Origin: a virus
Virus record (IMG/VR): IMGVR_UViG_3300025009_000210
Coordinates: 1 to 41,916 of that record
Strand: one strand, 5' to 3'
DNA length: 41,916 bases
In this document: positions 8,134 to 27,596 of the stretch, one piece after another
Position numbering within the stretch: the first letter of the stretch is position 1
Layout: every line of letters starts with the position of its first letter
Made by a program: the position numbers and the translations under genes
The notes under the pieces: generated by a model
The model's database searches: none
Told to the model about the DNA's origin: nothing
The model's input: the letters and a program-made list of their open reading frames with translations, nothing else

Positions 8134-8373
8134 TTAATATGTACTTCTACGACTTTTAATAACATCGGGTTTTTTAACTGCCTTTTCTTCCTTTTCTTCC
8201 TTTTCTTCCTTTTCTTCCTTTTCTTCCTTTTCTTCCTTTTCTTCCTTTTCTTCCTTTTCTTCCTTTTCTTCCTTTTCTTCAAGCACCCAACCAAGCTCAA
8301 TAGCTTTTACTACGGTAGCAGGTTCTTCGTTGAGTTTAATCTTGCGTCCATCTTTTTTAATCCAGGTTTTCAT
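8134..8373 (-). CDS. Small protein with an 11-copy Glu-Glu-Lys repeat
   Basis: I place the start at 8373 (79 residues, MKTWIKKDGRK) because AAAGGAG precedes it at normal spacing; the in-frame ATG at 8400 has no such site. Residues 1-31 form a small basic domain (KLNEEPATVVKAIELGWV) seen in short phage proteins next to coat genes. Residues 32-64 are eleven perfect Glu-Glu-Lys triplets, a single charged helix, and the last 15 residues are basic. Function is unknown. The position between coat and gp4-like genes suggests a virion or assembly protein. The repeat is probably prone to slippage. Confidence 0.65.
   Translation of the reverse strand: MKTWIKKDGRKIKLNEEPATVVKAIELGWVLEEKEEKEEKEEKEEKEEKEEKEEKEEKEEKEEKAVKKPDVIKSRRSTY
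8182..8280. repeat. 9-bp tandem repeat, 11 perfect copies
   Basis: Eleven uninterrupted copies of CTTTTCTTC on the plus strand, read as GAA-GAA-AAG on the coding minus strand. All copies are identical, which points to recent expansion or continuing slippage. The plus strand is a pure pyrimidine tract of about 100 nt, so triplex formation is possible. Confidence 0.95.
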
Positions 8374-8436
8374 TATAACTCCTTTAGTAAGGCTCGCCAT
8401 ATTTCAGACGAGCCTTTGATTAAGGTTATTGGTTAA

Positions 8437-20566: not shown

Positions 20567-20611
20567 GCAATGGTCAACCGGCACGTATCGCAGTGGGAAT
20601 TGTAATGTACA

Positions 20612-20681
20612 CCAAGGACCAAGGACCAAGGACCAAGGACCAAGGACCAAGGACCAAGGACCAAGGACCAAGGACCAAGGA
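20612..20681. repeat. Heptamer tandem repeat, 10 perfect copies
   Basis: CCAAGGA is repeated ten times without error and followed by CC. It directly follows the half palindrome TTGTAATGTACA. Iterons of this kind occur in replication origins, but simple slippage can make them too. Confidence 0.95.
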
Positions 20682-20820
20682 CCTGTGCTATTAGTTACGC
20701 GCGAACAAGCGTTAAACGCAAGATTTGTGTTTTATGAAATTTGAGCTAAGTGAAATAATTTACAATTAGGTGTATAACGTTGGTACGCATCTTGCAGTCC
20801 TTATTATAGGTGTGAGGTAG

Positions 20821-24858: not shown

Positions 24859-25044
24859 GTGAACGAAAATACCCTTGAAATATTTTATCAAACAAAACCA
24901 GAATATTATACAGGTGACGACGTGGCCATAACAATCCACTATAAAGCTAAAGGCCAAGGTATGGCTGAGGACATAGCCAACCAGGTAAAGGACTACGTAG
25001 CAAAAACCTACGCTATTAAAACCCTGATACATAACTATGCATAG
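24859..25044 (+). CDS. Small hypothetical protein, GTG start
   Basis: A 61-residue protein that starts at GTG, with AAAAGGAGATAAGTC before it at good spacing. It has a beta hairpin-like N-terminal half (LEIFYQTKPEYYTGDDVAIT) and a helical C-terminal half. No family is recognised. It is placed tightly between neighbours in the early operon. Confidence 0.5.
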   Translation: MNENTLEIFYQTKPEYYTGDDVAITIHYKAKGQGMAEDIANQVKDYVAKTYAIKTLIHNYA

Positions 25045-25057
25045 GAGAGATAAAACC

Positions 25058-25156
25058 ATGACCGAAAATCAAAAAGAAGTCTTTAAGACTATTATAGAGA
25101 TTGTATTAATAACCGTTATCGGATATCCTTTAATGATATTCTTTCTAACATTATAA
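25058..25156 (+). CDS. 32-residue single-span membrane protein
   Basis: A small frame with AGGAGAGATAAAACC before the ATG. Residues 1-10 are charged (MTENQKEVFK) and residues 11-32 are one hydrophobic helix (TIIEIVLITVIGYPLMIFFL). The stop is at 25154-25156, and the next gene starts 14 nt later with its own ribosome site. This spacing makes translation likely. Early one-span proteins of this size often act on host membrane proteins, but nothing specific can be claimed. Confidence 0.55.
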   Translation: MTENQKEVFKTIIEIVLITVIGYPLMIFFLTL

Positions 25157-25170
25157 AGAGAGGTTAGACC

Positions 25171-25659
25171 ATGCAAATTTTTTGGCCGGAAAACAGCTAT
25201 ACACTATCAGCACAAGCCTTGGATGATAAAAGGCTTAACAAGCAAATTGTAGAACTTGGTCAAATCTTATCGACTGCTATATGGATAGAGGACTGTAATA
25301 TAGCAGAGACCTTGTACGCTAAGGGTGAGATTTATTTACCTGCCTATGAGAATCATCCTGTAGTAAAGGACTGTAAACACTACTACTATAAAGCTGTAGC
25401 TTATCAAGCCTATCTATGTATGGAATACACCTGTAGATATCGTAAACAACACTCTTTACACGTCACAAATGTATTCTATCAGAAACTCTACAGTTTGTTT
25501 ATACACCATTCTGAAAGACCTTTTCAAAATTATACAACAAACCATAAACATATAAAGGATGTGAACGAAGCATACCGACAATGTTTAATTGCAAAATGGA
25601 AGTCAGATAAAAACCCGCCTAAATGGACCCGAAGAAATATTCCAATTTGGGCAAAATAA
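25171..25659 (+). CDS. Pyrimidine dimer DNA glycosylase-like protein
   Basis: A 162-residue protein. The N-terminal segment ALDDKRLNKQIVELGQIL and the following NHPVVKDCKHYYYKAVAYQA match the layout of the phage and bacterial Pyr_excise (T4 endonuclease V-related) proteins: a KRLxKQ-type helix, then a NHP turn and an aromatic helix. Family members remove UV-damaged bases. The C-terminal end (PPKWTRRNIPIWAK) is basic and aromatic. The assignment is from pattern memory and the catalytic residue is not identified, so activity is uncertain. Confidence 0.55.
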   Translation: MQIFWPENSYTLSAQALDDKRLNKQIVELGQILSTAIWIEDCNIAETLYAKGEIYLPAYENHPVVKDCKHYYYKAVAYQAYLCMEYTCRYRKQHSLHVTNVFYQKLYSLFIHHSERPFQNYTTNHKHIKDVNEAYRQCLIAKWKSDKNPPKWTRRNIPIWAK

Positions 25660-25662
25660 CTC

Positions 25663-25691
25663 TTGACAAAAATAAAAAAGTATGATAGTCT
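25663..25691 (+). promoter_or_regulatory. Predicted promoter P2
   Basis: TTGACA (25663-25668), 17 nt, TAGTCT (25686-25691), with an upstream TG (extended -10). The outline CTTGACA-N12-TATG is the same as in P1 and P3. It serves the single gene that follows. Confidence 0.65.
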
Positions 25692-25759
25692 GTTAACCAT
25701 AGAATGAAACACGGCCAAAAGGCCACACAACCAAACACCATTATGAAAGGATTAAAATC

Positions 25760-26272
25760 ATGGCTGAAAAATCACCCGAACAAAAAGAGAGAGACAACGC
25801 CCGAAACGCAGCAATTCGCACCGCAAAAGAAACGATCAGGGCATTTTTCGCAAACAAACTATTCGGCAAGCTGCCGGAAAACATTCAGGAAGCCCTTAAA
25901 ATCCTGGCCCCTACTGCCCGGCTTGCAACCAGTACACTTTCCCAGGAATTGCGCGATCTGTTTGGTGACAAAACCATGCTGACCGAGCTTGAAGTATTTA
26001 AGGCTCTCAAGGTCGGCCCGAACGAGTTCAAAGCCAAGGTCAATCATGTTCTGAAACAGGCGCTTCCCGAAGAAAGAATGTGGATCAGTTACGATCCCCA
26101 GGAATGTACGTGGACACTGGTTTCCACAGGCGCACTTTGCCCCGAAGGTTTCAGGATGGACAACCTTATTCCTTCTGTTCAAGATTATCTGGATCACCCT
26201 GATTTTGAGACCCTGACAGTTTCTCAGTTGATTGCCGGATCAAAAACAAAAACAGAAATCCAGCCTGAATAA
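25760..26272 (+). CDS. Hypothetical protein in its own transcription unit (moron-like)
   Basis: A 170-residue soluble protein. Residues 1-40 are charged and helical (EQKERDNARNAAIRTAKETI). Residues 65-110 could hold a winged-helix-like segment (ELEVFKALKVGPNEFKAKVN), so a DNA-binding role is possible but not shown. The C-terminal part is acidic. The gene has its own promoter P2 and a strong terminator, and its codons look much richer in G and C than those on either side. This is the pattern of a moron, a recently acquired extra gene. AAAGGATTAAAATC precedes the start. Confidence 0.6.
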   Translation: MAEKSPEQKERDNARNAAIRTAKETIRAFFANKLFGKLPENIQEALKILAPTARLATSTLSQELRDLFGDKTMLTELEVFKALKVGPNEFKAKVNHVLKQALPEERMWISYDPQECTWTLVSTGALCPEGFRMDNLIPSVQDYLDHPDFETLTVSQLIAGSKTKTEIQPE

Positions 26273-26299
26273 AAATTCCCTGTTCTTCTCAGGTCTGGT

Positions 26300-26335
26300 A
26301 CCCCTCATGGAAATCGTTTCATGAGGGGTTTTTTA
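26300..26335 (+). terminator. Rho-independent terminator
   Basis: A 10-bp perfect stem (ACCCCTCATG with CATGAGGGGT), a 10-nt loop and a run of T (TTTTTTATT). It closes the single-gene unit begun at P2. The 100 nt that follow hold no gene. Confidence 0.9.
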
Positions 26336-26433
26336 TTCCTTGAACCCTGCCGAATAGCTCAAGACCTGCCCAATGCGCCTTCATAGAACCCGCCAAAAAG
26401 CCTTTTAAATCAGGCAATTATATTTAAAATCAC

Positions 26434-26462
26434 TTGACAAAACAGAATTTATATGGTAGTAT
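26434..26462 (+). promoter_or_regulatory. Predicted promoter P3
   Basis: TTGACA (26434-26439), 17 nt, TAGTAT (26457-26462) with an upstream TG. It restarts transcription after the terminator at 26300-26335 and would drive the genes from 26548 on. Confidence 0.7.
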
Positions 26463-26504
26463 TAAAATAAATGAAGAACAATGCAATACCTATAGCAGCA
26501 TTCG

Positions 26505-26547
26505 ATTGTAGTGTACATTACAAACTTTAACGTATGGAGGTTTAAAC
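26505..26547 (+). promoter_or_regulatory. Leader element L1: palindrome plus ribosome site
   Basis: ATTGTAGTGTACATTACAA followed by ACTTTAACGTATGGAGG and TTTAAAC before the ATG at 26548. Nearly the same text precedes the gene at 27003 (L2), and a more diverged version precedes that at 27640 (L3). As RNA the palindrome can form a 7-bp stem with a GUAC loop. Confidence 0.7.
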
Positions 26548-26886
26548 ATGGAAAATTCAGTTATTATAAACGGCGTAAAGTACGTCAAAGAAATTAAGAC
26601 AGACTCAAACAAATGCATAATCAGAACCTATTCAGCAGGGGTGCATTTTGGACAGGTAAAGAGGCGCGACGGCAAAGAAGTAGAGTTAATAAATGCCAGG
26701 AGGTTGTGGTACTGGGCAGGGGCTGCATCTTTATCGCAACTCGCTGTAGCCGGCGTCAAAAAGCCTAAAGAGTGTAAATTCTCGGTAGCTGTTCCGTTAA
26801 TAATTTTGACCGAGGCCATTGAGATTATCCCGTGTACCAGCGAGGCAGTAACAGTCATTGAAAGTGTGCAGACATGGGAAGTTTAA
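26548..26886 (+). CDS. Conserved phage protein (DUF6948-like)
   Basis: A 112-residue protein. The pattern IIRTYSAGVHFGQVKRRDGK, ELINARRLWYWAGAASLSQL and ILTEAIEIIPC is that of a widespread small phage family I recall as DUF6948. Its function is unknown. Some members, as I remember them, end in a Gly/Ser/Asp/Tyr repeat tail. Here the frame stops at 26886, and a Gly-Asp/Gly-Tyr repeat follows directly in another frame (26892-26945). The leader L1 gives it a strong ribosome site (GGAGG). Confidence 0.65.
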   Translation: MENSVIINGVKYVKEIKTDSNKCIIRTYSAGVHFGQVKRRDGKEVELINARRLWYWAGAASLSQLAVAGVKKPKECKFSVAVPLIILTEAIEIIPCTSEAVTVIESVQTWEV

Positions 26887-26945
26887 TAAGAGGAGACGGA
26901 GACGGATACGGATACGGAGACGGAGACGGATACGGATACGGATAA
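26874..26945 (+). CDS. Detached Gly-Asp/Gly-Tyr repeat tail (23 codons, -1 frame)
   Basis: An ATG at 26874 in the -1 frame of the preceding gene opens a 23-codon frame ending at TAA 26943-26945. After six residues it reads as Gly-Asp and Gly-Tyr pairs (GDGDGYGYG, twice). It has no ribosome site of its own. It could be reached by frameshifting or by re-initiation, or it may be the dead tail of the gene before it. Confidence 0.35.
   Translation: MGSLIRGDGDGYGYGDGDGYGYG
26892..26939. repeat. Hexamer repeat (GGAGAC/GGATAC)
   Basis: Eight hexamers in the order GGAGAC x2, GGATAC x2, GGAGAC x2, GGATAC x2, that is a 24-bp unit repeated twice, followed by GGATAA. All codons in the Gly frame are GGA plus GAC or TAC. 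Confidence 0.95.
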
Positions 26946-26956
26946 CTTTACTATAA

Positions 26957-27002
26957 AATGTACCGCACATTACAAATTTTAACGTATGGAGGTTTAAAAC
27001 TA
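26957..27002 (+). promoter_or_regulatory. Leader element L2
   Basis: ATGTACCGCACATTACAAA, then TTTTAACGTATGGAGG and TTTAAAACTA before the ATG at 27003. The 3' 30 bases are almost the same as in L1, while the left half of the palindrome has drifted. Confidence 0.65.
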
Positions 27003-27596
27003 ATGAAGCTTAAAAAAAACAGGTGGGTAGATAAAAAAGGCAACTCATGGGATGGCGAGATTCGGGAGGCAGAAGCTGAAAGACGAAGTAATACTTTGAT
27101 AAACTGTTCCAACTGTTCCAACTGTTCCAACTGTTCCAACTGTTCCGACTGTTCCAACTGTTCCGACTGTTCCAACTGTTCCAACTGTTACGACTGTTCC
27201 GACTGTTCCGACTGTTCCGACTGTTCCCGCTGTTCCGACTGTTCCCGCTGTTCCGACTGTTCCGACTGTTCCCGCTGTTCCCGCTGTTACGGCTGTTCCA
27301 ACTGTTCCAACTGTTACGGCTGTTCCCGCTGTTCCGACTGTTCCCGCTGTTACGGCTGTTCCAACTGTTCCGGCTTTACAGCAAACCCTGCTCGGTACAC
27401 ATCTAAGCCGTTAGGCAGTAGAGCGGATCAGACTACAACATATTGGTTAACCCCTGAAAAAACCTGGGTTGTTTGCGGATGTTTTAAAGGTGATCTGGTT
27501 GCTTTTGAAGCGGCTGTAGACAAAACTCACGGGACCACAGTACATGGAATAGCTTATAAAGAGTATATTAAACAAGTAAAAAGGCTTATAGATTAG
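27003..27596 (+). CDS. Cys-triplet repeat protein with conserved C-terminal domain
   Basis: A 197-residue protein from the ATG at 27003 (GGAGG before it). Residues 1-33 are basic (KLKKNRWVDKKGNSWDGEIR). Residues 34-123 are thirty tandem triplets x-Cys-Ser or x-Cys-Tyr, where x is Asn, Asp, Arg or Gly. The last 70 residues (LGSRADQTTTYW, then VVCGCFKGDLVAFEAAVDKT and HGIAY) form a domain that I recall at the C-terminus of many phage repeat proteins. The spacing of Cys every third residue would suit a beta-helix or a metal- or redox-active array. The function is unknown. Confidence 0.7.
   Translation: MKLKKNRWVDKKGNSWDGEIREAEAERRSNTLINCSNCSNCSNCSNCSDCSNCSDCSNCSNCYDCSDCSDCSDCSRCSDCSRCSDCSDCSRCSRCYGCSNCSNCYGCSRCSDCSRCYGCSNCSGFTANPARYTSKPLGSRADQTTTYWLTPEKTWVVCGCFKGDLVAFEAAVDKTHGTTVHGIAYKEYIKQVKRLID
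27102..27371. repeat. 9-bp coding tandem repeat, 30 copies
   Basis: Each unit reads NNC-TGT-TMC. Codon 1 is AAC, GAC, CGC or GGC, codon 2 is always TGT, and codon 3 is TCC or TAC. No synonymous difference occurs among the thirty units. Confidence 0.95.

What the first reader, a model, noticed from the sequence alone, without database searches (positions are those of the whole stretch)
27102..27371. Thirty Cys triplets with no synonymous variation
The gene at 27003 has thirty x-Cys-Ser/Tyr triplets. Every unit reads NNC-TGT-TMC. The differences (AAC, GAC, CGC, GGC; TCC, TAC) all change the amino acid. The lack of silent change points to very recent expansion or active homogenisation, combined with amino-acid diversification at two fixed positions. 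Changes centred on AAC and TAC codons resemble the adenine-targeted pattern of diversity-generating retroelements, but no reverse transcriptase is seen here. Cys every third residue could give a beta-helix with a Cys ladder, a metal-binding or a redox array.
Basis: partly seen in the sequence, partly recalled or inferred. Interest (0 to 1): 0.66.

Follow-up and report, generated by a model that had tools for sequence, protein, structure and literature searches.

The report
Phage protein with diversified cysteine-triplet array
An uncultivated phage carries an early-region gene whose protein has a cysteine at every third residue for 30 repeats; it belongs to a large, unnamed phage family in which this repeat replaces known rod-forming repeats, and its exposed residues diversify fast while silent sites lag behind.

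Summary
In detail: window 27102-27371 holds exactly thirty 9-bp units, NNC-TGT-TMC, with no silent change. One array of five unit types is weak evidence alone. Across 133 related arrays, mostly IMG/VR, the two residues beside each Cys have piN/piS 2.96 (2.41-3.55), against 0.03 for the Cys codon. Amino-acid diversity is already high when silent diversity is zero, and silent diversity accumulates afterwards. The protein's C-terminal domain is also found fused to hexapeptide, pentapeptide and LRR-like repeats; the penta/hexa arrays show the same signature. I therefore read the Cys triplet as a narrow beta-solenoid repeat with Cys inward. This is inferred: AlphaFold gives the array pLDDT 41-59, and no coil period was found. 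Near-identical phages differ mainly inside the array at constant unit number; one phage with about 15 paralogous arrays shows mosaic exchange. DGR (reverse transcriptase in 1 of 33 contigs) and radical-SAM maturation (4 of 33) are not supported. Function is unknown; a diversified binding surface is my best guess.

The parts
27003..27596 (+). Cys-triplet array gene, 197 aa plus stop
   Evidence: ORF and translation; matches phrog_15341 over residues 1-125 (E 4e-25) and phrog_20532 / phrog_7964 over residues 133-195, all of unknown function; no Pfam and no significant NCBIfam match
26985..27002 (+). Likely ribosome-binding region (ggaggtttaaaactaATG) of the gene
   Evidence: Read from the sequence; inference
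27003..27101 (+). N-terminal cap (MKLKKNRWVDKKGNSWDGEIREAEAERRSNTLI), conserved W-D-x-N-x-W pattern
   Evidence: Conserved across 30 family proteins; pLDDT blocks 94, 88, 87
27102..27371 (+). Array of 30 units NNC-TGT-TMC (x-Cys-Ser/Tyr), no silent variation
27372..27593 (+). C-terminal domain A (FTANPARYTSKPLGSRADQTTTYW...VVCGCFKGDLVAFEAAV...YIKQVKRLID)
   Evidence: Alignment A1 with invariant N-P, G-S-R, C-G-x-F-x-G; found after Cys, hexapeptide, pentapeptide and LRR-like repeats; pLDDT blocks 86-97, three strands and two helices

Best explanation
It is an early-region, probably cytoplasmic phage protein: an N-terminal cap, a variable-length Cys-triplet rod, and a C-terminal domain. Shown here: the family, its architecture, the interchange with other repeat types, the excess of amino-acid over silent diversity, and the exchange of segments between paralogs. 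Inferred: each C-x-x triplet is one short face of a narrow beta-solenoid, with Cys side chains stacked inward and x1/x2 pointing out. The array is remade by recombination between units, or between paralogous arrays, which keeps silent sites uniform. Selection favours mixed and changing outward residues, probably because the rod is a binding surface in a conflict, such as blocking a host defence or host enzyme. That last step is a guess.
For: Same C-domain follows hexapeptide (15 ORFs), pentapeptide (6) and LRR-like (1) repeats as well as Cys triplets (48). In penta/hexa arrays core codons do not change amino acid, while outward codons have piN/piS of 5.5 and 2.4-4.2, matching Cys against x1/x2 here. 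piN is 0.26 in arrays with piS of zero and rises only to 0.48 as piS reaches 0.82. L336 vs L339: 3733 bp with 3 differences, all in the array and all amino-acid changing. L003 vs L155: 21 differences in the array, 13 in 2736 bp of flank. L028+465 vs L048+5715: 16 in the array, 3 in 594 bp. Paralogs in one phage share 39 exact 36-bp words against 0.1 in shuffles. Best PDB sequence match is the Tenebrio antifreeze beta-helix, an inward residue every third position (E 0.009, compositional, not homology). Occasional C-to-F/Y/L/M/A replacements. Neighbours include SNF2 helicase, ERF annealase, YqaJ exonuclease and SSB.
Against: AlphaFold is not confident in the array with an alignment (pLDDT 41-59) and fails without one. 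Foldseek finds nothing significant. No clear coil period: only a weak enrichment at four units. Function was not tested. Most arrays come from metagenome assemblies, where short repeats can be misassembled. Among isolate-linked arrays the ratio is lower, 1.79 (1.24-3.10), though that subset includes off-family pattern hits and old arrays. piN/piS was not corrected for relatedness.
Confidence: 0.5

Rival explanations
1. Thiolate array: the Cys residues bind zinc, copper or iron-sulphur, or buffer redox, in the cytoplasm; the residues between are incidental.
For: Cys at every third residue is nearly invariant (Cys codon piN/piS 0.03). The gene sits among early genes, so the thiols should meet a reducing cytoplasm (inference).
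Against: Incidental spacer residues should show piN/piS near or below 1, not about 3. The same cap domain carries hexapeptide and pentapeptide arrays without a Cys core. The rare replacements of Cys are F, Y, L, M or A, with few polar ones and none to His, Asp or Glu in the sense-strand cases read by eye.
Confidence: 0.13
2. Neutral minisatellite: a slippage-prone, disordered array without a role beyond length.
For: Other short tandem arrays lie in this phage: EEK at 8181-8280 and ACCAAGG at 20611-20683. Array length varies from none (L189) to about 60 units.
Against: piN/piS about 3. Short-block slippage in simulation gives adjacent-unit similarity 1.6-2.0 times random at the observed diversity, while observed arrays give 0.975. 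Closest equal-length pairs change content, not unit number.
Confidence: 0.15
3. Diversity-generating retroelement target.
For: Varying codons include AAC and TAC.
Against: No reverse transcriptase in the window, and in only one of 33 related contigs. Variation is not restricted to adenines. Paralogs share multi-unit segments, which points to recombination.
Confidence: 0.01
4. Repeat precursor modified by radical-SAM enzymes, like His-Xaa-Ser proteins or TvgA.
For: Three-residue repeats resemble His-Xaa-Ser; weak NCBIfam HxsA4 match to a relative (E 0.0005, below cut-off). Repeating-motif precursors exist (PMC9062424).
Against: Radical-SAM matches above cut-off in 4 of 33 array-bearing contigs, none in the window. 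Large conserved caps on both sides.
Confidence: 0.03
5. DNA-level function: the 9-bp units are protein-binding sites (iterons) inside a coding gene, as in the lambda O gene (from memory), which would explain fixed silent bases.
For: Array lies in the DNA-metabolism region; cumulative GC skew reaches its minimum around 25-27 kb.
Against: The fixed bases differ between arrays (Ser codons AGT, TCC, TCG, TCT, TCA or AGC), and older arrays have high silent diversity.
Confidence: 0.03

Closest known systems
phrog_15341 / phrog_20532 / phrog_7964 / phrog_31265 (PHROGs v4, unknown function)
   Same: Window protein matches phrog_15341 (cap plus array) and phrog_20532 / 7964 (C-domain); the alternative C-domain B matches phrog_31265
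   Different: These are unnamed clusters. The PHROGs entries as listed say nothing of the Cys-triplet architecture, the interchange of repeat types or the diversification
Pentapeptide-repeat proteins (A-[DN]-L-x-x, Rfr right-handed quadrilateral beta-helix)
   Same: Fused to the same C-terminal domain in related phages (L179, L182, L203, L205); same fixed-core, variable-outside codon signature
   Different: Five-residue A/L core repeat; here three residues with Cys core. No sequence homology of the repeat
Hexapeptide left-handed beta-helix repeats (GDAxVYGNAxVSG type)
   Same: Fused to the same C-domain, including gp34 of cultured Ruminococcus phage phiRM10 next to Rad52-type annealase genes
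   Different: Six-residue repeat with A/V core and a different N-terminal domain
Tenebrio molitor antifreeze protein (PDB 1ezg)
   Same: Cys-rich, inward-pointing residue at every third position (fold from general knowledge); best PDB sequence match (E 0.009)
   Different: Twelve-residue units with alternating Cys and Ser/Ala, disulphides and an ice-binding TxT face; insect, secreted. Resemblance is compositional, not homology
His-Xaa-Ser repeat proteins (HxsA) and TvgA
   Same: Short residue-level tandem repeats
   Different: No linked radical-SAM maturases; His-Xaa-Ser not Cys-x-x

Membership tests
Cys-triplet phage protein family (as delimited here) | Conserved W-x-D-x-x-N-x-W cap, six or more Cys triplets with x2 mostly NRY codons, conserved C-domain | tested here: met
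Pentapeptide-repeat protein | A-[DN]-L-x-x five-residue motif | tested here: not met
   Translation; no Pfam pentapeptide hit
Hexapeptide left-handed beta-helix | Six-residue [LIV]-[GAED]-x2-[STAV]-x type motif | tested here: not met
   Translation; no Pfam hit
Beta-solenoid fold in general | Regular coils with inward core ladder and outward faces | tested here: inconclusive
   AlphaFold pLDDT 41-59 with an E--E--E pattern in part of the array; no coil period; Foldseek none
Diversity-generating retroelement | Linked reverse transcriptase | tested here: not met
Diversity-generating retroelement | Adenine-specific variation against a template repeat | tested here: not met
   Units vary among A, G and C at x2, and C against A at x1. 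A template repeat was not searched for specifically
Radical-SAM matured repeat peptide (HxsA-like) | Linked radical-SAM enzyme | tested here: not met
   0 in the window, 4 of 33 related contigs over cut-off
Metallothionein-like metal binder | Stoichiometric metal-thiolate binding | not testable with these tools
   Needs purified protein

The most novel reading that the evidence does not exclude
A new solenoid class with one Cys per three-residue face, used by phages as an exchangeable, recombination-diversified binding rod. Some phages keep a bank of about 15 paralogous arrays whose segments are swapped by gene conversion, a phage analogue of cassette-based variable gene families.
Probability: 0.3. 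Interest if true: 0.85.

Novelty: new variant of a known kind. Interest (0 to 1): 0.62.

Why it matters
The relatives number in the hundreds in IMG/VR (107 by full protein, 174 by C-domain A, 499 by C-domain B), yet they are unnamed. In the cultured Flavobacterium phage FL-1 record a different reading frame is annotated over the array. If the reading is right, it adds a solenoid type with a simple three-residue code. It also suggests that phages diversify solenoid surfaces by exchanging repeat units rather than by reverse transcription. The targets of these rods may be host defence or host DNA-metabolism proteins, which makes them a route to finding such systems. FL-1 and prophages in named strains (Rhizorhapis suberifaciens DSM 7465, Kaistia dalseonensis B6-8) make it testable.

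Tried and rejected
Near relatives of this phage: none in INPHARED by DNA or protein. Terminase relatives at 43-71% identity carry no copy of the gene in the 24 records searched (many are fragments), so the window array itself could not be compared with near-identical copies. Coil-period search: only weak lag-4 enrichment, not decisive. Structure: alignment-based model uncertain in the array, single-sequence model useless, Foldseek empty. Search for a donor of the replaced 72-bp block of L155: no exact donor in the same phage or its relatives; mosaic sharing between paralogs was found instead. In one search the pairs within one locus are trivial self-overlaps and were ignored; only pairs between different contigs are used. 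The Cys-position tally mixes antisense frames; only sense-strand cases were used, by eye. Literature searches found no description of the family; the library holds open-licence papers only.

Full report
WHAT IS THERE. The window is an IMG/VR-type virus record of 41,916 bases with a P22-type coat protein, a terminase and a family A DNA polymerase. The gene at 27003-27596 encodes 197 residues: a 33-residue N-terminal part, thirty x-Cys-Ser/Tyr triplets at 27102-27371, and a C-terminal domain of about 73 residues. The array is exact: thirty 9-bp units, NNC-TGT-TMC, no silent change. The gene lies between a DUF6948 gene and a DNA ligase gene, with one short ORF in between, near a pyrimidine dimer glycosylase and an SNF2 helicase. 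This is an early DNA-metabolism region with nothing to suggest secretion (inference).

FAMILY. A search of IMG/VR found 107 loci encoding relatives, and 13 bacterial genomes carry one, likely prophages or fragments. Nearly all share the Cys triplet array; two chance C-rich repeats (L008, L057) were left out. x1 is mostly Ser (2457 of 3984 units). x2 is 93% NRY codons, that is D, G, R, N, Y, S, H or C. The window type ends in domain A, with invariant N-P, G-S-R and C-G-x-F-x-G. A second group ends in an unrelated-looking domain B with a WHTCxTTHCRAGW motif, for which 499 loci were confirmed; 75 of the 79 distinct ORFs among the best 80 carry Cys triplets, and the other four are cut at the contig end or frame-shifted. 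Other members have short C-termini. PHROGs holds these as unnamed families; Pfam has no match and NCBIfam none above its cut-offs.

THE REPEAT IS EXCHANGEABLE WITH KNOWN SOLENOIDS. Searching with domain A alone gave, among distinct ORFs of the best 80 loci, 48 with Cys triplets or close variants, 15 with hexapeptide repeats (GDAxVYGNA), 6 with pentapeptide repeats (ANLxGANL) and 1 with an LRR-like repeat. Hexapeptide and pentapeptide repeats are known beta-solenoids (established knowledge). Variants with C-S-x-L-x-x and C-Y-N-M-I-N units (L172, L148), and C-to-F or C-to-Y changes (L018, L146, L152, L020), put other non-ligand residues in the Cys position. This supports, but does not prove, that Cys is a core residue of a short-faced solenoid. 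AlphaFold models both ends confidently but the array at pLDDT 41-59, with an E--E--E pattern in part of it; Foldseek is empty. The best PDB sequence match is the Tenebrio antifreeze beta-helix (E 0.009), a compositional resemblance.

DIVERSITY WITHOUT SILENT CHANGE. In 133 arrays of ten or more units, comparing units within each array, x1 plus x2 have piN/piS 2.96 (bootstrap 2.41-3.55) and 123 arrays have piN above piS; the Cys codon has 0.03. Silent bases are uniform within arrays but differ between arrays. Arrays with zero silent diversity at x1/x2 (28 of them) already have piN 0.26; piN rises only to 0.48 while piS rises to 0.82. So amino-acid diversity appears first and silent diversity follows with age. 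Pentapeptide and hexapeptide arrays from the same search show the same pattern: core codons piN 0, outward codons piN/piS about 5.5 and 2.4-4.2 (small samples, 6 and 12 arrays, one or two of them not attached to domain A). The signature therefore seems to belong to these phage solenoid genes in general, not to cysteine.

HOW ARRAYS CHANGE. Adjacent units are no more alike than random (ratio 0.975 in 199 arrays), whereas simulated short-block slippage gives 1.6-2.0 at the observed diversity. Simulated long-block exchange with frequent unit change is compatible. Tandem paralogs share their unit alphabet (for example all types in L021) while the order is no more similar than shuffled. In the closest pairs between different contigs, differences concentrate in the array: L336/L339, 3 of 3 differences in 3733 bp; L003/L155, 21 in 183 bp against 13 in 2736 bp of flank; L028/L048, 16 in about 261 bp against 3 in 594 bp. 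In these three pairs unit number is unchanged and 28 codons change amino acid against 2 silent. A related phage group (G026, G028, G029) carries 9-15 array genes per contig; paralogs within one phage share exact multi-unit segments (39 words of 36 bp against 0.1 in shuffles in G026), which is the mark of segment exchange. Identical arrays recur in contigs from different samples (L155/L157, L048/L049, L140/L142), so assembly noise does not explain everything.

MECHANISM. Best reading: recombination between units or paralogs continually rebuilds the array and keeps silent sites uniform, while selection favours varied outward residues. Recurrent neighbours include ERF-type annealase, YqaJ exonuclease, SSB and SNF2 helicase, and phage phiRM10's hexapeptide version sits beside Rad52-type and NinB/NinG genes, so the machinery for such recombination is at hand (inference). 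What the rod binds is unknown; an anti-defence or host-takeover surface is a guess.

ALTERNATIVES. A retroelement is rejected by absence of reverse transcriptase. Radical-SAM maturation is unlikely. Metal binding cannot be tested here and remains open. A neutral satellite is disfavoured by the codon data. A DNA-level role is disfavoured because the fixed bases differ between arrays and old arrays lose silent uniformity.

LIMITS. The window array has no close relative, so its own turnover was not observed. Most data are metagenome assemblies. Ratios ignore phylogeny. The isolate-linked subset gives a lower ratio, 1.79, and contains both old arrays and off-family pattern hits.

Noticed in passing
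window 26874-26945 (+): Mini-ORF MGSLIRGDGDGYGYGDGDGYGYG directly upstream, built of GGA-GAC / GGA-TAC codons, again varying only in the amino acid. A similar mini-ORF (MESLIITSTGYGCGDGYGSG...) lies about 1.4 kb from the Cys array in L042.
   Followed up: partly
window 8134-8400 (-), array at 8181-8280: Gene next to the coat protein gene with eleven identical 9-bp units (EEK repeat, 100% identical), a recent undiversified expansion.
   Followed up: no
window 20611-20683: Seven-bp ACCAAGG repeat, 10.4 perfect copies, apparently non-coding, close to where gene orientation switches.
   Followed up: no
L461, L462, L463 (G026), L466 (G028), L464/L465 (G029): One phage group carries about 9-15 paralogous Cys-array genes in clusters, with swapped array segments.
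   Followed up: yes
L409 4482-5310 (Flavobacterium phage FL-1, KY421186.2): Cultured phage with a Cys array gene; the record annotates a different frame over the array, and the reading frame breaks within the C-domain, by sequencing error or a real frameshift.
   Followed up: partly
L189 about 130-350: Family member in which the array has collapsed to a single Cys unit between intact ends, showing that length runs from almost none to about 60 units.
   Followed up: no
L372: Domain B ORF whose upstream array reads as ARTARTART, suggesting a frameshift inside the array.
   Followed up: no
window 25000-27000: Cumulative GC skew reaches its minimum here, several kb after the gene-orientation switch, a possible origin region.
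   Followed up: no
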